In this document: piece by piece, positions 4,871 through 31,811 of the stretch
Numbering within the stretch: position 1 is the first letter of the stretch
Layout: each line of letters begins with the position of its first letter
From: Gammaproteobacteria bacterium
GTDB lineage: Bacteria > Pseudomonadota > Gammaproteobacteria > Pseudomonadales > Azotimanducaceae
Assembly: GCA_009846005.1 (NCBI GenBank)
Contig: VXYL01000004.1
Location: 1 to 44,071, forward strand
Direction: 5' to 3'
Length of the DNA stretch: 44,071 nucleotides
Program-made: the position numbers and the translations under genes
Notes under the pieces: generated by a model
What the model was told of the DNA's origin: nothing
Database searches by the model: none
The model's input: only the letters and a program-made list of their open reading frames with translations

Positions 4871-5596
4871 CTAATGGCTCCCGCTGGCAAGCTGGGCCGC
4901 CGCCACATGAAATGCCGGATCACGCTTGCGGGACATGATCGCGGCCGCCGTCCTGCCGTCGCGGTCGGGAATGTCCCCCCTGGCGCCGTATGCCGCGAAC
5001 GTCCGGAAGTGCCGAATGTCGCTTCTCTTCTTCAGCATGTAGTGCAACGCGGTCATCCCGCGCACGTCCCGGTAGTCCGGGTCGGCACCTGCCTCGAGCA
5101 GCGCCTTGGCACCCCGGAACCTGCTGTACTTGGCGGCGTGCAGGAGCGGCGTTTCCGCTTCCGCAACGGCCTCCAGGTTCGCTCCCGCGTCCACGAGCAG
5201 CGCGACCATGTCGAGGTCATCGCGATAGACCGCCGCCCAGAGGCAGTGTTCCGGCGATGATCCGGACGCCAGCAGGTACCGTGCCAAATCGATATTGCCG
5301 CCCCGGGAAACGGCGTACCACAGCGGCGTAGCCCGCCAAGTCCCCTCGGTGAACGCGGCCGCGTTGACGTCGATTCCGAGGTCGAGCAGCGCGCCCGCCA
5401 GCGGAATCGCGTCTGCCGGGTCCAAACCTCCCACGCGCGCATCGACACTCGCGCAGAGGTGCAGCCAGTTCCGGCCACGCTCGTCGACGTGGTACAGCAA
5501 TTCGGGGCGCGACTTGAGTCCGGCGACCACCGCCCCAGCGTCGAATGCTCTTACGCACGCCGTGAGGCGACTCTTCGAAGTCGGCACTACACCCAT
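4871..5596 (-). CDS. Ankyrin-repeat protein
   Basis: A 241-residue protein made almost wholly of ankyrin repeats, which mediate protein-protein binding. Five to six repeats can be read: about residues 40-78, 88-115 (ATPLWYAVSRGG), 116-141, 148-173 (TPLLHAAKYS ending in GADPDY), 180-207 (MTALHYML) and a degenerate one after 214. No signal peptide or membrane segment. The ATG at 5596 has AAGGA 9 bases upstream and starts after the ParB-like stop; longer open frames would overlap that gene. It follows the ParB-like gene by 62 bases on the same strand and may share its transcript. Ankyrin proteins occur in symbionts as secreted effectors but also as housekeeping partners; export by the T3SS 3 kb away is speculation. 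Confidence 0.85.
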   Translation of the reverse strand: MGVVPTSKSRLTACVRAFDAGAVVAGLKSRPELLYHVDERGRNWLHLCASVDARVGGLDPADAIPLAGALLDLGIDVNAAAFTEGTWRATPLWYAVSRGGNIDLARYLLASGSSPEHCLWAAVYRDDLDMVALLVDAGANLEAVAEAETPLLHAAKYSRFRGAKALLEAGADPDYRDVRGMTALHYMLKKRSDIRHFRTFAAYGARGDIPDRDGRTAAAIMSRKRDPAFHVAAAQLASGSH

Positions 5597-5658
5597 GAGA
5601 CTTCGTCCTTCATGGTCCGTCTTTGAAAGTCGGGCGAGTAGGACAGCATCCGGTCCGG

Positions 5659-6888
5659 CTATGGGTTCGACTCCGGGTCTTTCGACCCCGACGCGTTGCG
5701 AATCGCATCCACGACTGCACGTTCCCAGCCGCCGCGTTGCGCCCGTAGGACCTCCGCCACCGCCGCGCATCGCCACCGGTCCCACTCCAATCCGCTCGCG
5801 CGTGCCGTCGACCAGACGCAACCCTCTAGCCATGCTCGCTCCGCGTCCTTCGCAACCTCACCCGTAAGGGTCGCCGCCAAGCGCCGTCCGAGCCGCACCC
5901 GCGCTGCCCCGGACATTTCCACCGCCAACAGCGCCTCGATCTGTTCCGCCAGTTCCGCCTGCTCCGCATCCGTCTGTTCGTGCGCACGTACGTTGACCGA
6001 GAAACCGCCGCGGCGGTCGCGGTCGATCTTCGCCATCACAGGTCCGCCGCGGTTCCTTCTCTTGCGGCGTTCAAAGAGCGTCTCCCGGTCCATTCGGGCA
6101 CCTGCGGCGCCGAACAATGCGTCATACAGGGCAATCGCCGGCAGTTCTCCCGGCGTCAGCGCCTTCGCCCGCCGCATTGCCTCCGGCTTGAGCGTCGCGT
6201 CCTCGCACGCGGCCGCGAGCCGTTCGGCCTGGCGGCTGGTTAGTTCGTGCATCACGGGGTAGACGAGGCGCTCGATCCACGCCTCGTCCAACAGTGCCGT
6301 CGCACTCTTGATCGCCCGCGAGACCGTGTTCCGACTGCACCCGATATCCGCTGCAAGCGCCGATTGGTTGACGAACACGCCGGCCTCCAAGAGCGCCTTC
6401 CACTGTCGGGCGTTCTCAAGGGGCGATACGCCTTCCGACCACTCGTTCTCGCCATACATCAAGGCCGCACAGTGCGCATCGGACAGCGACGCTTCGCGGA
6501 CCTCTGCGCGCCACGGTACCCCCGCGCGCCGACATGCCTCGAGGCGACGCACGCCGAACACCGCCTCGACGACGTGCGAGTCTCCCGGCGGCAGACGACG
6601 CGCCAACCCCAACTGCTGCTGTCCGTCGCGGCGGATTGACGCGGCCAGCGCCTCCAGAGACTCATCGTCCATTCCGGACCGCGTACGGTTGTGGTAGTCC
6701 CACGGACGCACCTGGGCTGGATCGAACGCCTCGATGTGCACGACTTCCGGCGTTCCACCCGAGGGGTCCAGCCCAGACTCCGGCGGCAGCGCTACATCAC
6801 CGCTGCCCGACTCCGACGCACTCCGGGGCATGGGCCCCGCTCCGGCGACCGGAATCTCTCCCGGCCCCATCGTCTGATCCTTGGTCAT
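5659..6888 (-). CDS. ParB/Spo0J-like DNA-binding protein, orphan
   Basis: A 409-residue ParB-family protein. The ParB/Sulfiredoxin-type N-domain runs from about residue 60. It includes SLEALAASIRRDGQQQ, the VFGVRRLEACRRAG segment (counterpart of the GERR box) and an ENEWSEGVSPLENARQW segment (counterpart of the ENxQR box). The helix-turn-helix follows (ADIGCSRNTVSRAIKSA). The C-terminal third is unlike chromosomal ParB and resembles plasmid or phage partition proteins. No parA lies beside it, so a classical partition operon is not evident; it may act as a DNA-binding regulator or belong to a mobile-element remnant. ATG at 6888 is preferred because GGAG sits 8 bases upstream; the GTG 6 bases earlier would be too close to it. 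Confidence 0.82.
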   Translation of the reverse strand: MTKDQTMGPGEIPVAGAGPMPRSASESGSGDVALPPESGLDPSGGTPEVVHIEAFDPAQVRPWDYHNRTRSGMDDESLEALAASIRRDGQQQLGLARRLPPGDSHVVEAVFGVRRLEACRRAGVPWRAEVREASLSDAHCAALMYGENEWSEGVSPLENARQWKALLEAGVFVNQSALAADIGCSRNTVSRAIKSATALLDEAWIERLVYPVMHELTSRQAERLAAACEDATLKPEAMRRAKALTPGELPAIALYDALFGAAGARMDRETLFERRKRRNRGGPVMAKIDRDRRGGFSVNVRAHEQTDAEQAELAEQIEALLAVEMSGAARVRLGRRLAATLTGEVAKDAERAWLEGCVWSTARASGLEWDRWRCAAVAEVLRAQRGGWERAVVDAIRNASGSKDPESNP

Positions 6889-8394: not shown

Positions 8395-10057
8395 CGGACC
8401 CATCCGGTTCGACGGTGTCCTCGGCGATGTACCGCTGACGCGACCGCCCCTCGGCATCGTCGCGGTCCAGACCACCGGATTGCGGCGTAGTCACACCAAG
8501 TTGCACGCGCTCGCCAGGCAGCCGCTCCGCAAGCGTCTGCCGCAGAACGGATTGATTCTCCGCCAAGAACCGCTGCGACGCTTCCGTCGGCGCCTCGAAG
8601 ACCACGCGAAGCTCTCCTGCCTCCCGGTATATCCGGATGCTGCTACCGTCGAGAACCGATGCGTTGAGCCCGATGCGGATCTCGTCGGACCTGCCCGACT
8701 GCGGAACGGAGACCAAGATACGGTCGACGACCTCGCGAGTCGTCGCGGCGACATCCCGGGTCGGCGACTGTTCGGCCGGCGCTACGGCGGACGCGGACGG
8801 CGCGGAACCGTCAGCGGCGATCATGCTCGATACCTGCTCAACCTCGGCGGCACCCGTCTCAATGGCGTCCGGTTCGCGCCCGGCCTCCGGCGGCGTCTCC
8901 TCTTCGACCGAGGCCCGGGAACTACGTTCGGCGACGCCTGGCATCGGCCGCCCATCGCCGGACCCGGGAACGCGCGGGTCAGCGTCCACGACTCCGCCGG
9001 GGACGTCGTGCCGCAACGTATCGCCGACCGACCGCATTCGTCCCCGCGCCGGCGCATGCGTGTCTACACCACCGGCGTCCGGCGCGCCATGCGCCGGTCT
9101 CCGCGTGCCGGCAACAGTCGGTGACCCGATGGATGCGCGGTCGCTGGTTTCCCGGGATCTCGAATCCCTGGGCCTCGGCGGGGCCACCGGTCCGGGCGGA
9201 GTGCCGGTCGCGGTGGACGCGACGCGTTCAGGGCGGCTCGGCGTCGGCGGGCCGGTCCCCGATATCGGCGGGTTTGTGCGACCCAAGGTTCGGCCCGGGT
9301 CGGCCGCCGTCGGTCCGACTGCTGGCGCAGCGGTAGTCGCCGATGGCCGAGCATTGGTCTGAATCTCGTCCCGCGGGCCCGAGATCGGCGGCGCCGTTCG
9401 GTGCGGACCGCCTTCGGCGGTGGCAGTCGGGGCAGTGGCGGGCGCGCCTACAACCCCTTCCCGGGCGAGGGTTTCCCGCCCATCGGCATGCCCACTGCCG
9501 GTATGCGCAACGCGCTCGGCTTGCCCTGGCGGATCTGTCAGCGCGCTTCCTACGGCCTCCGTCGCGACGCTTCCGCGTACGTCCGCCCGTGCCACGCCAA
9601 CAGGGGCCATGCGCTCCGTCCGTCCGGACGGAACGGAGGCTCTTTCCACGGGTTTCCCGGCGACGGCGTGCCGTTGCCGGCCTCCGCCAGCAGGCGTCAT
9701 GCGCTGGCCCTGCCGGGAAGGGTCAGCCGGTGCCCTTTCCGCGGCTTCTGCGGGGGCCGCGGCGGTCGCTTCGCGCCCTGCTGCCCCTCCCCCGCCGGCG
9801 GGTGCCGCGTGTTCCGCCTGCCCCGACGCGTCGGACGGCGAGCTATCCGCCGCCTTCGAGGTCGCGAAACGACCTAGCGAGCGGTTTATCGCCCGGCGCG
9901 TCTCGGGCGCCTGTGCCTCGTTCAACTCGTCGCCGTGCGCGAGCGCCTCGTCGAACGCGCGCTCGTTCTCCGGCGCGGCGCGCTCCTGGGTCGGCGGCGC
10001 AACCGCCGGCGCCGCTGCGGCACCGGGGTTGCCCGGCACGCCTTTAATGTCGCTCAT
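8378..10057 (-). CDS. sctP: T3SS needle-length regulator SctP (YscP-like)
   Basis: A 559-residue Pro/Ala/Gly-rich protein in the sctP position between sctO and sctQ. SctP acts as a secreted molecular ruler and triggers the SctU substrate switch. The conserved C-terminal type III substrate-specificity domain is at about residues 458-523 (counted from the ATG), including DEIRIGLNASVLDGSSIRIY and LRVVFEAPTEASQRFLAENQ. The middle is disordered-type sequence with four degenerate 31-36-residue repeats (DNA 9437-9832) built on a D-P-x-G-Q-A-E-R-M-A-P-type core. The whole is near the length of large YscP alleles, which would predict a long needle. ATG at 10057 is used; a GTG at 10072 overlaps the sctO stop (GTGA) and could be the coupled start. 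Confidence 0.82.
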   Translation of the reverse strand: MSDIKGVPGNPGAAAAPAVAPPTQERAAPENERAFDEALAHGDELNEAQAPETRRAINRSLGRFATSKAADSSPSDASGQAEHAAPAGGGGAAGREATAAAPAEAAERAPADPSRQGQRMTPAGGGRQRHAVAGKPVERASVPSGRTERMAPVGVARADVRGSVATEAVGSALTDPPGQAERVAHTGSGHADGRETLAREGVVGAPATAPTATAEGGPHRTAPPISGPRDEIQTNARPSATTAAPAVGPTAADPGRTLGRTNPPISGTGPPTPSRPERVASTATGTPPGPVAPPRPRDSRSRETSDRASIGSPTVAGTRRPAHGAPDAGGVDTHAPARGRMRSVGDTLRHDVPGGVVDADPRVPGSGDGRPMPGVAERSSRASVEEETPPEAGREPDAIETGAAEVEQVSSMIAADGSAPSASAVAPAEQSPTRDVAATTREVVDRILVSVPQSGRSDEIRIGLNASVLDGSSIRIYREAGELRVVFEAPTEASQRFLAENQSVLRQTLAERLPGERVQLGVTTPQSGGLDRDDAEGRSRQRYIAEDTVEPDGSDVRNG

Positions 10058-10529: not shown

Positions 10530-11885
10530 CTAGCCCCCGACCGCCTGTCGAAGTCGCTCGGTTGTCTCCTCCAGGCTCGACCGCTCGAACATGCCCTGCT
10601 TGAGTACGGCGTTGATCGGCTCCACCCTGTCGATCGCCTCGTCGGCGAGGGCGTCCGCGCCGCGCTTGTACTCGCCGATCCGGACCAGGAGTTCAACCTC
10701 GCGATACTTGGCGAGCAGCTCCCGTGCGCGGCCCGCCACGCGCAGGTGGTCCGGTCCGACGATGTGATTCATCACCCGGCTCACGCTCGCGAGCACGTCG
10801 ACGGCAGGATAGTGGTTCGCCTGCGCCAACGAGCGCGACAGGATGATGTGGCCGTCGAGAATCGACCGCGTCTCGTCGGCCACGGGTTCGGTCATGTCAT
10901 CGCCCTCGACGAGGACTGTGTAGAGTGCGGTGATCGAGCCGGCGTCGGACTGGCCGGCCCGTTCCATGAGCTGCGGCAGCGCCGCGAACACCGACGGCGG
11001 GAAACCCCTTCGCGTCGGCGGTTCGCCCGCTGCCAGCCCGATCTCGCGTTGCGCGCGCGCGAAGCGCGTGACGGAGTCCATCATTAGCAGGACGCGCATG
11101 TCCCGGTCGCGGAAGTACTCGGCGATCGCCGTGGCGACGTAGGCCGCCTTCAGTCGCTCCATCGCCGGGCGCTCCGACGTCGCCACGACCACGACGGACT
11201 GCTTGAGCCCCTCGGCGCCGATGTCCTGCTCGATGAACTCGCGGACCTCCCGGCCCCGCTCGCCGATCAGCGCAAGAACCTTGACGTCCGCCGCGGCGTT
11301 ACGGATGAGCATCGACAGCAGCGTGCTCTTGCCGCCTCCCGCGGCCGCGAAGATGCCCATGCGTTGACCCTCACCGCAGGTAAGCAGCCCGTCCAGCACG
11401 CGCACGCCCGTGCCGAGCGGCGTGTCGATCACCTTGCGCTGCATCGGATCCGGTGGCTCGGCGAGTACCGGGTAGTTCGCTCGGCAATCCGCCGGGCCGC
11501 CGTCGAGAGGCCGTCCGAGGCCGTCAAGAACCCGACCAAGCAGGCCGTCGCCCACCGCCACCTCGCGGCGGCGTCCCGTGGCGGCCACCGGCGTCTCGGC
11601 AGAGATACCCACCGTCGTGCCCAACGGCGACAGCAGTACGTCATGGCCCTCGAAACCGACCACCTCGGCCAAGGTCTCGGGCTCGTGCGCACCGTTGCCC
11701 TCAAGGCGGCACAGGTCGCCGACGCCGACACGGCCGACGGCTGCACGGACCAGCGAACCGGTCACGCCGACCACGCGGCCCCGCCGCTTGACCAGCGGCG
11801 CCGTACGCAGGGCGTGCTCAATGCCGTCCATCGTGCGGTCCAGCATCGCGCGCACGTCTACGCCGTCCTTCATTGCGCCTTCCAT
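10530..11885 (-). CDS. sctN: T3SS ATPase SctN
   Basis: A 451-residue F1-beta-like ATPase that unfolds substrates and strips chaperones at the export gate. Walker A is AAGGGKST (residues 181-188). The Walker-B-type strand is VLLMMD (265-270). The catalytic Glu is in [11 protein letters not shown], and the arginine-finger segment is ASVSRVMN near residue 370. The N-terminal oligomerisation domain and C-terminal helical domain are both present, so the protein looks complete and active. AGGAGG lies 7 bases before the ATG, one of the best ribosome sites in the window. It starts 11 bases after the sctV stop and is followed by sctO. Confidence 0.96.
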
Positions 11886-11896
11886 CGCGCGCCCTC

Positions 11897-14008
11897 CTAC
11901 AGCGCAATCCGCCCCAGGGGCTGCACCGTCACCTCCGGGGTCAGCTCCTGAAACGACAGCACGGCAAGGTCGGAGATCTCAAGCTCCAGCATCTTGCGCA
12001 CATAGCGGCGGATGTCCATGGCCGTGACGACCACGGGCTTGTGTTCCAGGCGACCGATGTCGCCGACCAGCGATTTCGCCTGCGCGACCAGCTGCCGCGT
12101 CGCCGACGGCTCGAGCGCGAGGTAGTTCCCGGACGCCGTCTGGCGGATGCCGCCACGCACGAGTTCCTCAACGTCCTCGTCGAGCAGGTACGCCGACAGG
12201 ACGTTCTGGTCGCTGCTGTACTTGTAGCTGATGTAGCGCTTGAGATTGCCGCGGACGTACTCGGTTAGAACCACGACGTCCTTCTCCTGCTGGCCCCATT
12301 CGACCAGCGACTCGAGGATCAGCCGCACATTGCGGATGGAGATGTCCTCGCCCACCAAGCGCTTGAACACTTCCGTCGTCTGGTTGACCGGCAGGACGCG
12401 CTGCGCCTCCTTGATGAGGTCTGGAAAGGTCTGCTCGAGGCGCCCGAACAGGTTGTAGGTCTCCTGGATGCCGATGAACTCCTCGGCATACCGCTTCATC
12501 ACGTAGGCGAGGTGGAAGGTCAGCACGCGGTGCATTTCGAGATAGGACATCGACGCCTCGGCAAGTGCTTCGGCATGGGCGCTGTCGAGCCAGACCGTCG
12601 GCACATTCGGCAGGAACGGCTCGCCGGTTTCGTGCGGAAGCCTCAGGACATCGAGTTGGCGCGGACTGTCCGCATAGAGCACGTTTCCGGGGCGCAGTTC
12701 GCCCCGGGCCACGGGAATCTCCTGGAGCAGGATGGCATAGGCGTTCTCCGCGAGGTTCTCATTGAAGCGCACGTGCATGCCTGGGAACGGCACGCCGAGA
12801 TCGAGATAGAGTGCGCGGCGGACTTTCGCCGCCTCCCGGTTGAGCGCGGGCATGTCGAGGTGCTCCTGAAGCGATGCGGAGATGTCCATCAAAAGCGGCG
12901 CGCCGAGCGTGATCTCCTGCTCGCCGCGAAGCTCCGCCTCCACCTCCGCCTCCGTGCTGGCCTCGGCGGGCACGGGTGTCAGCACCGCGGCGACGTCGCG
13001 CTCCGCCGCCCCGGCACGCCGACGCGAAGCCCGCATCAGTAGAATTCCCGTGCCGCCCGTGACCGTGGCGAGGGCTAGGAAGGTCACCGTCGGGAACCCG
13101 GGGATCAGGCTGAACGCCACCATGAGCGCCCCGGCCACCAGCAGCGCCTTTGGCTGGGCACCGAACTGCTCGCCGATGTCGGTGGCTAGGTTCTCCGTAT
13201 CGTCGGTGCTGACCCGCGTGACGATGATCCCCGCCGTCATCGCGATCAGGAGCGCCGGTATCTGTGCCACGAGGCCGTCGCCGATGGTGAGGATCGAGTA
13301 GACCTGCATCGCCTCCTCGATGCTCATGCCTCGCTGCGTCACCCCGATCACCAACCCGCCGACCAGATTGACGGCGATGATGATGAGTCCGGCGATGGCG
13401 TCGCCCTTGACGAATTTCATGGCGCCGTCCATGGAGCCGTAGAGCTGGCTCTCCTTCTCCACCTTCTCGCGCCGCCGACGCGCCTCGTTCATATCGATCA
13501 CGCCGGCGCGCATGTCGCCGTCGATGCTCATCTGCTTGCCCGGCATCGCATCCAGGGAGAACCGCGCGCTCACTTCGGCAACCCGCTCGGCGCCCTTGGT
13601 GATCACCAGGAACTGCACGATCGTGATGATGAGGAAGATGACCAGTCCGACCACGAGGTTGCCAGCGACGACGAAATTGCCGAACGTGTCGATGATTGCG
13701 CCCGCATCCGCCTGCAGCAGCACCAGCCGTGTCGTGGCGATCGCCAGCGCGAGGCGAAACAGGGTGGAAAGCAGCAATACCGCCGGGAACGCGAAGAACT
13801 CGCCGGCCGACGAGATGTACACCGCCAGCATGAGCAGCACCACGGCGATGCCCATGCTGGTCCCGATCAGCACGTCGACCAACGCCGTCGGCAACGGCAG
13901 GATCATCATGAAGATGATGGCGACCAGAAGCGATGCGAGCAGGACGTCCTTGCGCTGGGTCAGCGCGTTGAGCGCGTGTTGGACGTTGTCCGGAAAAATC
14001 AGCGCCAA
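11897..14008 (-). CDS. sctV: T3SS export-gate protein SctV
   Basis: A 703-residue inner-membrane protein of the FHIPEP/SctV family. The N-terminal half (about 20-320) holds the transmembrane helices and the conserved cytoplasmic loop with [35 protein letters not shown] and [13 protein letters not shown]. The C-terminal half (about 345-703) is the soluble domain that forms the nonameric ring and binds chaperone-substrate complexes. Length is normal for the family. The start is an unusual TTG at 14008; no in-frame ATG lies before the first membrane helix, and a TTG is consistent with the family N-terminus. It follows sctX-sctY as in Yersinia. Confidence 0.96.
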
Positions 14009-14755: not shown

Positions 14756-15139
14756 CTAGAGTCCCATGTCCGCGTAAATGCCCAGGATCAATCCCAGCGC
14801 ATCGAAAAGGCCGCGCGACTGCGCGCGTTCGACGCGCGCCGCGAGCACGAGGACGTCAGCACCCTTCAGGCCCGCCTGCAGAAAAAACGGATGGTCGTGT
14901 TCGAAGCCGGTGGCGCGCAGCAGAAGGCGTGCCTTGGCCTCCACCTCGGCGACCGGGGCGCGGCGCAGCACCGCCAGGACGACGGTCTCGCCGGTACGCT
15001 CGACGTCGATCAGATACTTGCCTTCCTCCACGGCGAGATTCAGCACGTCCCCCGTCCACGCCCGGGCATCGGCGAACCCGAGCCCCGCGCCGAAGTCCGC
15101 CAGCGCGGCACGCCACCAGTCCGGCCCGGGCTCAATCAT
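14756..15139 (-). CDS. sycN: SycN-like T3SS chaperone
   Basis: A 127-residue protein with the alpha/beta pattern of small T3SS chaperones (CesT/SycN fold). An N-terminal helix WWRAALADFGAGLGF is followed by beta strands (GKYLIDVERTGETVVLAVL) and a C-terminal helix. In Yersinia SycN pairs with YscB to chaperone the gatekeeper YopN; no separate YscB is evident here. Its place between sctW and sctX matches the yopN-tyeA-sycN-yscX order. The ATG at 15139 overlaps the sctW stop and suggests coupling; an in-frame ATG at 15151 is an alternative. Confidence 0.75.
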   Translation of the reverse strand: MIEPGPDWWRAALADFGAGLGFADARAWTGDVLNLAVEEGKYLIDVERTGETVVLAVLRRAPVAEVEAKARLLLRATGFEHDHPFFLQAGLKGADVLVLAARVERAQSRGLFDALGLILGIYADMGL

Positions 15140-16262
15140 CGAAGTCTTCATTGTCAATGGCGATGTCGAGCGCTTGCTGAACGGAGATCATGACGCGATC
15201 CCGCTTGGCCGCGTCGTCGCCGAACGCCTTGAGCGGCACGAAGCGGACCAGTTCCTTGAACCCCTGCAGGAGGTAGATGCCGGCCTGGTCGCCGTGTACG
15301 CCCATCTTCCCCGGCAGCCCGGCGAACGCGTCCGCGGCCTGCCACGCCCGGTCCTGCGCACTAAGCAGCTCGCCGAGCAACTCCCTCGGCGCAGCGGAAT
15401 CCAGGTCCGCATCGAAGTTCCTCCGCACCCGGCGGACGAGGTCCTCGCACTGCTCGTGCACCGAGTTAAGGGCCTTCAACTGGTACATGTCGTCCATGAG
15501 CTGCTTGATGTGCGGCTTCGATACGGACTGTGCGGTCGCCGCCAGATCGGCGCCGAGCCCCCGCAGCAGGAACCGCACCGCGTCGTCGAAATCCCTGCCG
15601 GGATGGTCCGCCACGACGCGCTCGTAGGCCGCGCCTATGTCGGCGCAGTCGAGCACGATGTCGCGGTAGAAGTCCCGTAGTTCCTGGACGTCACTGCCGG
15701 CACGACCTGCGAAGTCGCTGGCCACGGCGGACACGTTTAGGCCCGCCCGGACGGCGGCACCTTGTTCGGCATCCAACTCCGCGATCGCCTCGTCGAGCGC
15801 AGCCACCAGGTGCGGATCCGCCCCTTCCTCAACCGCCTCGTCGCGGGCGAAAGTGAGCGCTAGGTGCTGGTGGGTCCCATCCGCGGAGAACTGTCGGGCG
15901 CGCTCCCTTAGTAGCGCCGCGTCCGCAGCCGTCCCGCCTTCGAGTACCGACGACGCGAACTCGGCCAACCGGGCGTTGCGCTCCACGTCCGGGACGTCGC
16001 GTAGGTACTCGCGGATGCGCTCGAGGCGCGCAGACGACGCGCCGTCGCTGCTACGCAGACGGCGTTGCGAAAGCCGCTTCTCGACCACCTCGCTTTCCGC
16101 GAAGGTCAGTTCCTCGGCAGCATCCTGCAGTTCGGCGGTGGGGTCGCGGACGTGGCGGACGCGCTCGCCGCGGAACCGTCCGTCCGCGGCGGGTGCCTCC
16201 CCGGACCGGGCCACCGGCGCGGCGCCGCCGAGCGGCACGGTCGCATTGACAGTGTCGCTCAC
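15132..16262 (-). CDS. sctW: T3SS gatekeeper SctW (YopN-TyeA fusion)
   Basis: A 376-residue helical protein that fuses the YopN and TyeA parts, as in MxiC, InvE and CopN. SctW blocks translocator and effector export until host contact. The N-terminal 60 residues are secretion-signal and chaperone-binding type (unstructured, Ala/Pro/Arg rich). The helical YopN core runs to about 260 (DVQELRDFYRDIVLDCADIG is characteristic). The TyeA-like end is about 270-376 (HIKQLMDDMYQLKALNSVHE, GFKELVRFVPLKAFGD). The start is GTG at 16262 with a poor ribosome site; the gene lies 27 bases after sctB. Confidence 0.87.
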   Translation of the reverse strand: MSDTVNATVPLGGAAPVARSGEAPAADGRFRGERVRHVRDPTAELQDAAEELTFAESEVVEKRLSQRRLRSSDGASSARLERIREYLRDVPDVERNARLAEFASSVLEGGTAADAALLRERARQFSADGTHQHLALTFARDEAVEEGADPHLVAALDEAIAELDAEQGAAVRAGLNVSAVASDFAGRAGSDVQELRDFYRDIVLDCADIGAAYERVVADHPGRDFDDAVRFLLRGLGADLAATAQSVSKPHIKQLMDDMYQLKALNSVHEQCEDLVRRVRRNFDADLDSAAPRELLGELLSAQDRAWQAADAFAGLPGKMGVHGDQAGIYLLQGFKELVRFVPLKAFGDDAAKRDRVMISVQQALDIAIDNEDFDD

Positions 16263-16289: not shown

Positions 16290-17237
16290 TCAGGCACGCG
16301 ACCAGACCGCCTTGTTGGTCTGATGGAGGCTTTCGTCCATCTGCTGGAAAACCTGCAGCATGTCCTGGGCGCCTTTCTGCATCGAGTCCGCGAACCCCTT
16401 GGTCCGGTCGAGGTAGGCGCGCTGCTCCTCCGCCCGGGCCTCGGCATCCTTGCTGGCGGCGTCCGTTTGGCGCGACTCGTAGTCCAGCGCCGACTTGATC
16501 ATCTCGCCGGTCGCCGTGGACAGCTTCGACAGGCCCTCGGTCATGAGCGCAACGTTTTGCGAACGCGCCGACAACTGCTGAGAGCGGGTGTGGTCGAGCC
16601 GCCGCGCGGCCGTCTTCCGCTGCGCCGAGTCCTCCTCGACCGTATCCGCCGCCGTCTCCTCGCCCGGCGCCTCCGACGCGGGCGTGGTGGCGGTCTCGCC
16701 AGACACCGTCTCGGCGGGCACTCCCCCCGGCGCCGATGCCGTCGGCGCCTCGACCGTCGGTTCCATCGCAGCGCTGTTCGACGTCATGCGCATCCCCTGG
16801 ATACCGCCGCCGATGCTGATGCCGGCGCTGGCGATCTGGGTGGCGCCGGAGACCACGCCGCCGGCCAGCGCAAGCTTCGCGCTCTTGCGGATGTCGTCCG
16901 CGGAGGCGTGCATCTCGCGCGCCACCGAGTCGATTTGGGCCACCTCCGCGTCCCGCGTCGCGCGGGCGATCTCGGAATCGATCTGCATCATCAAGGCCGC
17001 GATGTGCCCGAAGTCGACGCCAACGTTATCGGCAATCGACTGCATCCCTGCCCCCGCCAGCCCGTAGTCGATCGGCTGCCGGCCGGCAGGCAGCGGTGCC
17101 ACCGACTCCGGCGGCGGGGCGGCGGCCGTGGCTGGTGCCGTGTCGATGGCTGGTCCCGCCGCGGGCGGCGGTGTCGCATCCGGTGCAGGGGTCTCGATCA
17201 TCCGACCGGGGCCGGACACTGGGTCTAGATCGCTCAT
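16290..17237 (-). CDS. sctB: T3SS minor translocator SctB (YopD-like)
   Basis: A 315-residue secreted protein with one hydrophobic segment (about residues 121-148, LALAGGVVSGATQIASAG), an Ala/Pro-rich N-terminus and a long charged helical C-terminus ending near QQMDESLHQTNKAVWSRA. This architecture and length match YopD-type translocators, which insert with SctE into host membranes. The middle (155-205) is low complexity. AGGA lies 7 bases before the ATG. The ATG overlaps the sctC stop (ATGA). It is separated from sctE by the genes 17234-21505, unlike the yopB-yopD pair of Yersinia. Sequence identity to known members is likely low, so the call is by architecture. Confidence 0.75.
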   Translation of the reverse strand: MSDLDPVSGPGRMIETPAPDATPPPAAGPAIDTAPATAAAPPPESVAPLPAGRQPIDYGLAGAGMQSIADNVGVDFGHIAALMMQIDSEIARATRDAEVAQIDSVAREMHASADDIRKSAKLALAGGVVSGATQIASAGISIGGGIQGMRMTSNSAAMEPTVEAPTASAPGGVPAETVSGETATTPASEAPGEETAADTVEEDSAQRKTAARRLDHTRSQQLSARSQNVALMTEGLSKLSTATGEMIKSALDYESRQTDAASKDAEARAEEQRAYLDRTKGFADSMQKGAQDMLQVFQQMDESLHQTNKAVWSRA

Positions 17238-19408
17238 GGGAAGTTCCTAGGGTTCGTGGTGGAGCGGAGTGCTGGTCGATGTGCGAGGCCAGTTTCCGGG
17301 GGGATCGGCGTCGGTGTCCGAAGGCTTTCCAGCCGGCGGATGAAGGGAATCCCGAACCGATCATCGTCACGCAGGCGCTCGGCAGCGGCGAGCGCGGCGG
17401 CCCGGTCCGGATAAACGCCCTCGAGCAAGGCGAAACCCGCCGCCGCCGCGCCGTGCCGGGCGACGCCCATCATGTGCTGCAGCCCGTGCGCCTGCACGAA
17501 GGCCTCAAGCCTGTCGGCGCTCGACAGCGCAATGACCTGCACCGCGTAGTGATCGGCCGGGTAGGCGCCGACGCCGATGTAGCCCAGCCGGTCCAGCGAT
17601 TCGGCTCCGTTGTCGGAGGACGGCGAGCGGACATTCCGCGGCGACTCTTGCGCCGGCAGGTCCGATGACGGCTCCGGTGCGTCGGTTTCTTCAACGGGCC
17701 CGGATACCGGCACCGGTGCCTGCGGTGCTGGATCCGGATTCGCCGCTGCGCTCACGGCCGTCACGGCATCCGCGCTGTCGAGCGCTTCGCCCTCGAAGCC
17801 GGTGTTTATCGAGTACGAGATTCCTGCGCGCAGGATCGTCGGCGTGATCAGGAAGTAGCGCGCCACCGACTGGTCCCGATCGGCGCGCGTCGACAGCAGC
17901 CGGCCGACGAGGGGAATCCGGCCGACCACGGGAATCCGCTGCCGGAAGCGGGTCTGTTCCCGGACCGTGTAACCGCCGATCAGAAGACTGCCGCCTTCGC
18001 GAACCACCGCGCGGGTCCGGATGACATTCTGCGAGACCTCCGGAACACCGGTTACCGCCAAGTCCGCGCCCCCGCGGCTGCCGTCCTCGATATGGATCGC
18101 GAGCTGCACCAGCCGGTGATCGCCGCCGTAGACGATGTGCGGGCGGATGCGTACCACCCACCCGTAAGACACCGGTGCGAGGTCGACGGCCTCGGCGTCG
18201 TTGCCGCCCAAGCGTACGTAGAAGGTTCGATTGTTGCGGAACGACGCCTCGTGGTTGTCGAGCGTCGTCACCGACGGCCGGGTCAGGACGCGGCTCCGCC
18301 CGGCATTGTGCAAGGCGCGGATGCGCACCGCGATTCCCTCCACGTCGAGCGCCTCCTCGTCGTAGCGGATGGCACCGTCGGCGGCGCCGATGTCGAACTC
18401 GAACGGGCCGGAGGCGAACTCGAAGCCGAGTTCCTCGGCCGCCGACGCATCGACGTCGAGCACCGAGACTGCGATCTCGATCTGGTCCACGGGGCGGTCG
18501 AGTTCGGCGATCAGCCGCTCGTAGACCGGCATCCGTGCCGCCAAGTCGCGCACGACGATGGCGTTGAGCCGCGGGTCGCCGAACACGAAGGCCTCGTCGC
18601 CCGCCGCCCGCGCGGCGACGACGGGGCCGACACCGGCGGAGGCCGCAGGGGCGCCGACCACACCAGACCCGCGCAGCTTCGGCACAGCGTCCGCCGCCGC
18701 TCCCACCGCCGTGCTAGCCGCGCCCGACATGTGGCCGACGTTCATCAGCTTTGCGACCATCTCGGCGAGTCCCGCAAGCCCCACCCCGTCCGTGCTCCCG
18801 GTAGATCCGTCCGCGTAGCCGTGCTCGACCTCGAAAATCCGGATCGCGAAGTCAGCTTCCCCGAGCGGCGCCGTCATGTCGCCGGTTCCTGCGAGTCCCT
18901 TGGCCAGTTCCGCCGCCCACTCGACGAAGCGTGGCGGGCCGGAAAGCTGCAAGGCGTTCTCGGCGGGCAGGTGAATCCAGTTAAGTGGCACGCCGCGAAT
19001 GCCGGTCGTCTCGACAGCATCCTGGAAGGCACCGCGGAGGGCGGACGGAAACGGCACCGTCTCGCTGACCGATTCGGTGCCGTCGTATAGGTAGAGCATG
19101 GTCCCGTCGTACACCCAGATCAGCCCGAAACGCGTGTGGACCTCGGCGAGGAAACGTTCGGCGGACGCGACCGGAACTTCACCGTCGGCGACAGCGTTGA
19201 CGGCACCGCTGACGATGACCGGCACGCCCAGCGTAGTACCGAACTCGTAGAGCAATGCGCGTAGCGACTCGTTGTCCGCAACGTAGCCGAACTGCTTGCC
19301 GAGCCAGTCGTCCGAGGCTTGTGTCGGCACCGGCGTCTGCGCGCACACGGTTGCCCAGTAGAGGGCGCCCGCGAGTAGCGAGAGCGCGGTCGGTGTGCCG
19401 CGGCGCAT
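17234..19408 (-). CDS. sctC: T3SS outer-membrane secretin SctC with C-terminal SPOR-like domain
   Basis: A 724-residue secretin. The signal peptide is about residues 1-23 (cleavage after ATVCA). N0/N1 domains follow (ESLRALLYEFGTTLGVPVIV, then SAERFLAEVHTRFGLIW), then a second ring domain (LNAIVVRDLAARMPVYERLI, 281-300) and the beta-barrel secretin core at about 310-530 (VLTRPSVTTLDNHEASF; GGSLLIGGYTVREQTRFRQR). After a Pro/Ser linker (545-615), residues 620-695 read as a SPOR-like domain: YAVQVIALSSADRLEAFV, then GFALLEGVYPDRAAALAAAE. SPOR domains bind glycan strands of peptidoglycan, so the fusion could anchor the secretin. The usual C-terminal pilotin-binding segment is replaced. ATG at 19408; its stop overlaps sctB. 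Confidence 0.92.
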   Translation of the reverse strand: MRRGTPTALSLLAGALYWATVCAQTPVPTQASDDWLGKQFGYVADNESLRALLYEFGTTLGVPVIVSGAVNAVADGEVPVASAERFLAEVHTRFGLIWVYDGTMLYLYDGTESVSETVPFPSALRGAFQDAVETTGIRGVPLNWIHLPAENALQLSGPPRFVEWAAELAKGLAGTGDMTAPLGEADFAIRIFEVEHGYADGSTGSTDGVGLAGLAEMVAKLMNVGHMSGAASTAVGAAADAVPKLRGSGVVGAPAASAGVGPVVAARAAGDEAFVFGDPRLNAIVVRDLAARMPVYERLIAELDRPVDQIEIAVSVLDVDASAAEELGFEFASGPFEFDIGAADGAIRYDEEALDVEGIAVRIRALHNAGRSRVLTRPSVTTLDNHEASFRNNRTFYVRLGGNDAEAVDLAPVSYGWVVRIRPHIVYGGDHRLVQLAIHIEDGSRGGADLAVTGVPEVSQNVIRTRAVVREGGSLLIGGYTVREQTRFRQRIPVVGRIPLVGRLLSTRADRDQSVARYFLITPTILRAGISYSINTGFEGEALDSADAVTAVSAAANPDPAPQAPVPVSGPVEETDAPEPSSDLPAQESPRNVRSPSSDNGAESLDRLGYIGVGAYPADHYAVQVIALSSADRLEAFVQAHGLQHMMGVARHGAAAAGFALLEGVYPDRAAALAAAERLRDDDRFGIPFIRRLESLRTPTPIPPETGLAHRPALRSTTNPRNFP

Positions 19409-31055: not shown

Positions 31056-31811
31056 CTATCCGGCGCGAAGCCTGGTCGCCAGGTAGACGTTGCCGCCGAT
31101 GGAGAGCAACAACGCCCCGCCGAACCCGGCGAGCAGGAAATAGAAGACCCTCACGGACCGCGCGGTCATCTCGACCGACAGTACGGAACGCAGCGGCTCG
31201 TCGTTGCCAAGGCGGATCACGTCGGCCTGCGCGGCGGGGAACAGCGCCACGTTCACCGCATCGTAGTCGAGGCTGTCGATCCCGCTCGCGACAATCGATT
31301 TGATTTGCGGGATGTGCTCGTCGAGGTCGTAGTTCGGATTGTGCTTGATGAACACCGCGGAGGACGCGACCGTCTCTTCGTCGTCCTCGTTCGGGATCAC
31401 GAGATGAACGCGCGCGGTCATCACGCCGTCGACGCGCGACAGCGTGTCCGCCAGTTCCTGCGACAGCCCGTAGATGTACCGCGTGCGGTCTTCGTAGGGG
31501 GTCGCGATGAGCTTGTCCGCGTTGAACAGGTCCGCGATCGTCGAGAACTTGTCCTTCGGGTAGCCGTTCTTGCGGAGCAGCCCCATCGCGAGGGGAATCT
31601 TGTCGGTGTCGACGAAGAGGCTCACCATGTTGTCCTTGGCGGCGCGCTTCTCGCTGCGGATGTCGTGCTGCAGTAGCAGGGCGAGCATTTCGTTGCCTTC
31701 CTGCTCGTCGAGTTGCGAATACAACTCGGTCATGTTGCACCCCGATACCGCAAGCGTCGCCGCCAGCACCGTTCCGCGCAGCCACCGCCGCAGAAGCCGA
31801 CGCCCACGCAC
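31056..31811 (-). CDS. sctJ: T3SS inner-ring lipoprotein SctJ
   Basis: A 251-residue lipoprotein of the YscJ/PrgK/FliF-like family. Signal peptide with lipobox AVSGC; the lipidated Cys is residue 25. Two ring-building domains follow (NEMLALLLQHDIRSEKRAAK; VARVHLVIP-like TARVHLVIPNEDD) with the GLSQELADTLSRVDGVM element between them. A C-terminal membrane helix is at about 224-245 (FYFLLAGFGGALLLSIGG). It forms the 24-subunit inner ring around the export gate. Start is GTG at 31811, directly after the sctI stop; SctJ is followed by sctK after 61 bases. Confidence 0.96.
   Translation of the reverse strand: MRGRRLLRRWLRGTVLAATLAVSGCNMTELYSQLDEQEGNEMLALLLQHDIRSEKRAAKDNMVSLFVDTDKIPLAMGLLRKNGYPKDKFSTIADLFNADKLIATPYEDRTRYIYGLSQELADTLSRVDGVMTARVHLVIPNEDDEETVASSAVFIKHNPNYDLDEHIPQIKSIVASGIDSLDYDAVNVALFPAAQADVIRLGNDEPLRSVLSVEMTARSVRVFYFLLAGFGGALLLSIGGNVYLATRLRAG

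What the first reader, a model, noticed from the sequence alone, without database searches (positions are those of the whole stretch)
17324..17551. T3SS secretin fused to a SPOR-like domain
The last 100 or so residues of SctC, after a Pro-rich linker, have the beta-alpha-beta pattern of SPOR (YAVQVIAL to ALAAAERLR). SPOR domains bind denuded peptidoglycan. In usual SctC the C-terminus instead binds a pilotin lipoprotein, and no pilotin gene is seen here. The fusion might replace a pilotin or a wall-anchoring factor, or place the injectisome at division or remodelling sites.
Basis: partly seen in the sequence, partly recalled or inferred. Interest (0 to 1): 0.8.

Follow-up and report, generated by a model that had tools for sequence, protein, structure and literature searches.

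The report
Injectisome secretin with cell-wall-binding tail
The outer-membrane ring protein of a bacterial injection machine carries an extra end domain of the kind that elsewhere grips bare cell-wall sugar chains, which suggests that the machine ties itself to the cell wall.

Summary
The gene at 17234-19408 (minus strand) encodes a type III secretion secretin (SctC, TIGR02516). After the secretin domain come about 85 residues predicted disordered, then a SPOR domain (residues about 614-697). Pfam alone is borderline (20.3 bits, cut-off 21). In the PDB, E. coli DamX SPOR is the top sequence match: E 0.05 with the window tail alone, 6e-4 with three SctC tails, 8e-11 once a SPOR domain of the same genome is added. 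AlphaFold predicts the SPOR strand-helix order, and five of the six best structural matches are SPOR domains. Between close relatives the domain is under purifying selection (dN/dS 0.10; linker 0.82). Three assemblies carry the fusion; two related SctCs, both in one genome, lack it. Its closest relatives among the domains compared are SPOR domains of chromosomal proteins of the same lineage. A secretin-SPOR fusion in another T3SS-like locus uses a different SPOR subtype, and Endozoicomonas-type SctCs carry an N-terminal LysM: wall-binding modules appear to have been added to T3SS secretins repeatedly. Most likely the tail tethers the ring to peptidoglycan; binding and division-site targeting are inferred. 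Pilotin replacement is not supported. SPOR on a secretin has a precedent: Legionella T2SS LspD, N-terminal, predicted.

The parts
17234..19408 (-). sctC: T3SS outer-membrane ring secretin with C-terminal SPOR domain, 724 aa
   Evidence: ORF; TIGR02516 295.2 bits over cut-off 238.45; Pfam Secretin, N0, Secretin_N
19082..19285 (-). N0 domain, residues 42-109
   Evidence: PF21304, E 8.8e-10
17828..18316 (-). secretin (beta-barrel) domain, residues 365-527
   Evidence: PF00263, E 8.5e-29; last predicted strand 507-526; dN/dS 0.041 against L069
17567..17824 (-). post-secretin segment and Pro/Ala-rich linker, residues 529-614, predicted disordered, no helix predicted
   Evidence: pLDDT < 50 over 529-614 in the full-length model; linker 561-613 dN/dS 0.82
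17318..17569 (-). DamX-type SPOR domain, residues about 614-697
   Evidence: PF05036 618-685; PDB sequence matches to 2lfv; predicted strand/helix order 621-692; structure matches; dN/dS 0.096
17237..17317 (-). C-terminal tail, residues 698-724, predicted disordered; absent from L070
   Evidence: pLDDT < 50 over 697-724; alignment
16290..17237 (-). next gene of the operon (SctB-like translocon subunit), overlaps the sctC stop codon as ATGA
   Evidence: ORFs; NF038055 24.1 bits, below its cut-off of 37
15132..16262 (-). sctW gatekeeper with TyeA region
   Evidence: TIGR02568 and TIGR02511, both over cut-off
11897..14008 (-). sctV export gate
   Evidence: TIGR01399 927.6 bits, over cut-off
10530..11885 (-). 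sctN ATPase
   Evidence: TIGR02546 628.3 bits, over cut-off
31056..31811 (-). sctJ, the only hit of the lipobox scan of the window
   Evidence: TIGR02544 191.9 bits, over cut-off; lipobox scan

Best explanation
The gene encodes a T3SS secretin (SctC) to which a DamX-type SPOR domain has been joined through a long disordered linker. Shown by sequence: domain identity, gene context, conservation and selection. [quoted passage not shown] These would bind glycan strands stripped of stem peptides and tether the ring to the wall with high avidity, as a built-in anchor, possibly with enrichment where amidases create such strands (division sites or remodelling gaps). The domain is most likely a copy of a SPOR domain from a chromosomal protein of the same lineage; the closest one found in this genome looks like a lipoprotein.
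For: SPOR identity. Purifying selection on SPOR (dN/dS 0.096, 91 codons) against linker (0.82, 52 codons), window against L069. Strand-1 Gln invariant in the three SctC tails and in the own-genome SPOR; DamX W364, S354, W416 and K418 correspond to F, A, F and R in the window protein (ungapped mapping; the roles come from passages of PMC6895207; RlpA also has Ala at the S354 position). No helix predicted between barrel and SPOR. Closest SPOR relatives among 28 compared: L004 (own genome, 37 percent; lipobox-like start read by eye), L128, L123; the SctC tail also found the L004 place in the own genome at E 2.7e-7. Repeated addition of wall-binding modules: a different SPOR in L068/L141 beside SctJ and SseC homologues; LysM in Endozoicomonas-type SctCs. 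Precedents, passages read: T2SS LspD with a predicted SPOR, PilQ with AMIN domains, PG anchoring said to be essential for envelope-spanning machines (PMC9239104; PMC6617341).
Against: The single-sequence Pfam score is below the cut-off; the window tail alone finds DamX only at E 0.051; no Foldseek match reached E 0.001. The DamX R380 position is Gly here, although Arg and His lie two and one positions before it. Against the more distant L070 the SPOR dN/dS is 0.39. Two related SctCs lack SPOR, so it is not required in all systems of this clade. No binding or localisation data exist. The ring copy number and C-terminus position come from other SctCs.
Confidence: 0.7

Rival explanations
1. The SPOR tail replaces the pilotin and S domain: by holding the secretin C-terminus near the wall or outer membrane it does the job of targeting and assembling the ring.
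For: No helix is predicted in residues 529-614; the lipobox scan of the window finds only SctJ; YscW-type pilotin found in 0 of 4 genomes, positive control rang.
Against: The two SPOR-less SctCs of the same clade also lack a long tail, and many Endozoicomonas-type SctCs end 0-5 residues after the secretin match, so absence of an S domain does not go with SPOR. Pilotins deliver via a lipid anchor and this SctC shows no lipobox by eye (sequence). Some secretins need no pilotin (PMC6532946 passages). InvH search uninformative; MxiM-type not tested.
Confidence: 0.12
2. The SPOR chiefly sends new injectisomes to division or remodelling sites, coupling placement to the cell cycle.
For: The family targets denuded septal glycan (passages of PMC6895207); the top PDB sequence match is the septal-ring protein DamX.
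Against: No localisation data; avidity for the wall could serve anchoring anywhere along the cell.
Confidence: 0.3
3. The domain keeps the SPOR fold but has lost glycan binding and serves as a spacer or protein-binding module.
For: DamX W416 is replaced by F and R380 by G.
Against: The Gln is invariant, aromatic or basic character is kept at W364, W416 and K418, and dN/dS is 0.096 against the closest relative.
Confidence: 0.13

Closest known systems
E. coli DamX SPOR domain (2lfv)
   Different: DamX is an inner-membrane cell-division protein (recalled; a reference title says inner membrane for the Salmonella product); here the domain is the tail of a secretin
Legionella T2SS secretin LspD
   Same: A secretin carrying its own SPOR or SPOR-like domain (passages of PMC9239104 and PMC6617341)
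   Different: T2SS, N-terminal before N0; here T3SS, C-terminal after a linker, DamX-type
T4P secretin PilQ with AMIN domains; TsaP LysM
   Same: Secretin channel anchored to peptidoglycan by added modules (passage of PMC9239104)
   Different: Other domain families, N-terminal or on a partner protein
Endozoicomonas-type SctC with N-terminal LysM (L076, L107 and others)
   Same: T3SS SctC with a peptidoglycan-binding module
   Different: LysM, N-terminal, almost no C-terminal tail
Secretin-SPOR of G739 (L068/L141)
   Same: Secretin with C-terminal SPOR (50.5 bits) in a T3SS-like locus with SctJ and SseC homologues
   Different: SPOR nearest CwlC and RlpA in the PDB (E 0.012-0.19), not DamX; TIGR02516 204.5 bits, below cut-off; same class but another order

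Membership tests
T3SS secretin SctC (TIGR02516) | Score over the curated cut-off | tested here: met
   295.2 bits against 238.45
T3SS secretin SctC (TIGR02516) | Encoded among T3SS core genes | tested here: met
   SctV, N, W, X and J over cut-off; FliP and Bac_export families, SctL, SctD-type
T3SS secretin SctC (TIGR02516) | C-terminal S domain with helices, pilotin site | tested here: inconclusive
   No helix predicted in 529-614, but pLDDT < 50 there; pilotin helices can be disordered when unbound (PMC9239104 passage)
SPOR domain (PF05036) | Score over Pfam cut-off of 21 bits | tested here: inconclusive
   20.3 whole protein, 23.5 in genome search; orthologous tails alone 24.5 and 21.3, whole L070 protein 17.6
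SPOR domain (PF05036) | RNP-like fold, four strands and two helices | tested here: met
SPOR domain (PF05036) | Conserved strand-1 Gln that contacts glycan | tested here: met
   Invariant in 4 of 4 aligned sequences; role from PMC6895207 passages
SPOR domain (PF05036) | Binds denuded peptidoglycan | not testable with these tools
   Needs a binding assay

The most novel reading that the evidence does not exclude
T3SS secretins have repeatedly become self-anchoring by capturing peptidoglycan-binding modules (DamX-type SPOR here, another SPOR type in G739, LysM in Endozoicomonas-type systems), in lineages whose SctC lacks a usual S domain; such injectisomes would be placed and held by wall chemistry, including at division sites, rather than by a pilotin.
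Probability: 0.3. Interest if true: 0.75.

Novelty: new variant of a known kind. Interest (0 to 1): 0.58.

Why it matters
How injectisomes are fitted into and held by the cell wall is, as far as I know, poorly understood; one known link is on a partner protein (the pilotin InvH binds peptidoglycan, PMC9239104 passage). A secretin that carries its own wall-binding domain makes the question testable with one small soluble domain. The introductory statement that all known SPOR proteins act in division or morphogenesis (PMC6895207 passage) would need widening, as LspD already suggests.

Tried and rejected
Frame or assembly artefact: rejected, since the same fused frame is in three assemblies with selection on the domain. 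SPOR-less relatives as frameshifts: rejected for what could be seen, since 300 codons of each of the three frames after the stop of L071 and L179 gave no match better than E 0.22 to a local SPOR profile (L071 also read). Direction of change (gain or loss): left open. The SctC tree joins L070 with SPOR-less L071 (92/94), as do SctV (85/75) and the concatenate (80.9/83); the SctN tree puts L071 outside (90/94). With L179 added the best tree joins L071 and L179, and the AU test rejects neither L070 with the other SPOR carriers (p 0.30) nor L070 with L071+L179 (p 0.73), but rejects L070+L071 without L179 (p 0.003). My earlier assumption of a loss in L071 (notebook) is therefore not upheld. Pilotin search: PF09619 0 of 4, control rang; PF04741 0 of 4, nothing rang, so uninformative. 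Literature: the listings (7 of 7 shown; 10 of 48; 10 of 40; 11 of 11; 6 of 6; 0 papers each), show no title or abstract start on SPOR in a T3SS secretin; passages were read in five papers only. on sponge symbionts: listing only (8 of 9). Structure comparison: the top VIA row is 6ozd, a putative exported protein whose SPOR content I did not check.

Full report
What is there. The minus-strand ORF 17234-19408 encodes a 724-residue protein. It is a T3SS secretin, SctC (TIGR02516 295.2 bits, cut-off 238.45) with N0, Secretin_N and Secretin domains. It lies in a T3SS gene cluster: SctW, SctX, SctV, SctN, YscO, a YscP/HpaP-like protein, a FliN/SctQ-like protein, SseC-like translocon subunit, FliP and Bac_export families, YscD-type, SctL, SctJ. 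The stop codon overlaps the start of the next gene as ATGA. The window is a whole contig, C73 of a 4.96-Mb, 106-contig genome. The SctC of a same-genus genome (G010) is identical to that of L069, whose record is titled Gammaproteobacteria bacterium IRC1_bin_7; the next relatives are a Pseudomonadales MAG (L070) and RHO1_bin_72 (L071). That IRC and RHO stand for the sponges Ircinia and Rhopaloeides is my guess.

Selection. Window against L069: dN/dS 0.041 secretin, 0.82 linker, 0.096 SPOR, 0.26 C-terminal tail of 20 codons. Against L070, which is more distant (SPOR 52 percent identical), SPOR gives 0.39 and linker 0.73, with synonymous sites near one change per site.

Glycan-binding residues. 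From passages of PMC6895207: DamX Q351, S354 and W416 matter for septal localisation, R380 and K418 form the basic patch, and W364 may add a contact. In the window protein the positions of Q351, S354, W416, R380, K418 and W364 hold Q, A, F, G, R and F. RlpA also has Ala at the S354 position. Binding is therefore plausible but untested.

Who has it. A TIGR02516 search at E 1e-60 matched 34 of 390 genomes of the order and 2 of 369 of the class, including the window's own. At E 1e-40 it matched 100 of 398 of the phylum, 14 over cut-off. In the family, 4 of 206 genomes hold a close SctC at E 1e-50, five genes in all. SPOR is in three (window, G010, G1286, the last identical to L070) and absent from two, both in G1138. 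Of 67 secretins scanned (of 84 distinct collected, some of them not SctC), SPOR is in 4: window, L070 and L068, and by inference L069, whose tail matches alone. Ten more SctCs had none. The 17 left out of the scan end 0-5 residues after the secretin match.

Origin. BLAST of the SctC tails against 28 other SPOR domains of four genomes (of 29 taken; L127 dropped because its frame was not found) gives L004 (37 percent), L128 and L123 as closest. The frame of L004 contains a start followed by a lipobox-like stretch, read by eye, and the SPOR at its end; I did not test the other two for a lipid anchor. The SPOR-bearing and SPOR-less systems are close kin, but the trees do not settle whether SPOR was gained once after the split or lost in the SPOR-less ones.

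Repeated capture. L068/L141 (G739, another order of the class) has a secretin with a C-terminal SPOR of 50.5 bits, beside YscJ/SctJ and SseC homologues. It is below the SctC cut-off (204.5 bits), so SctC identity rests on its neighbours. Its SPOR hits other SPOR domains and not the window's at E 0.01, and its nearest PDB relatives are CwlC and RlpA; two origins are likely, though SPOR domains diverge fast. Only five genomes of its order are held, and only G739 itself matched. In Endozoicomonas-type SctCs an N-terminal extension holds a LysM: Pfam-confirmed in L076 and L107, in 5 of 67 and 3 of 10; a local profile seeded from five of them matches 32 of 70 locus entries, with some genes fetched twice and seeds included.

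How it probably works. [quoted passage not shown] About 85 disordered residues could span several nanometres (my estimate). I infer a ring of SPOR domains that binds denuded glycan and tethers the injectisome. Anchoring is the most likely benefit. Enrichment at division sites is possible. Pilotin replacement is weakly supported, because related SctCs lack both features and because some secretins need no pilotin (PMC6532946 passages).

Known context. LspD of the Legionella T2SS carries a predicted N-terminal SPOR domain, PilQ carries AMIN domains and TsaP a LysM (passages). So wall-binding secretins are known. What appears new is a T3SS secretin with a C-terminal SPOR, and its recurrence; my paper searches (listings, with passages of five papers) did not show it, but the library lacks most subscription papers.

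Noticed in passing
L141 1862-4276 (G739:C23): Second secretin-SPOR fusion, in another order of the class, beside SctJ and SseC homologues and near an integrase gene.
   Followed up: partly
L076 7284-9485, L107, L168, L169, L176: Endozoicomonas-type SctCs with an N-terminal LysM domain and almost no residues after the secretin domain.
   Followed up: partly
L181 (G1138:C152): The genome with the SPOR-less SctC (L071/L178) holds a second, more divergent T3SS locus whose SctC is also SPOR-less.
   Followed up: partly
L071 about 9672-9992: About 320 bases between the SPOR-less sctC and the next gene hold what look like short direct repeats and an inverted repeat (read by eye); not tested for copies elsewhere.
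   Followed up: no
L059, L171, L172: Some SctCs carry a C-terminal extension with weak similarity to TraK_C (PF23536), seen in 6 of 67 and 2 of 10 scanned.
   Followed up: no
L129, L132, L138, L139 (G784:C76): One 710-aa frame holds four SPOR matches; own-genome C80 (L005, L006) holds two in a 514-aa frame.
   Followed up: no
window 4871-5833: Ankyrin-repeat protein encoded just outside the T3SS cluster.
   Followed up: no
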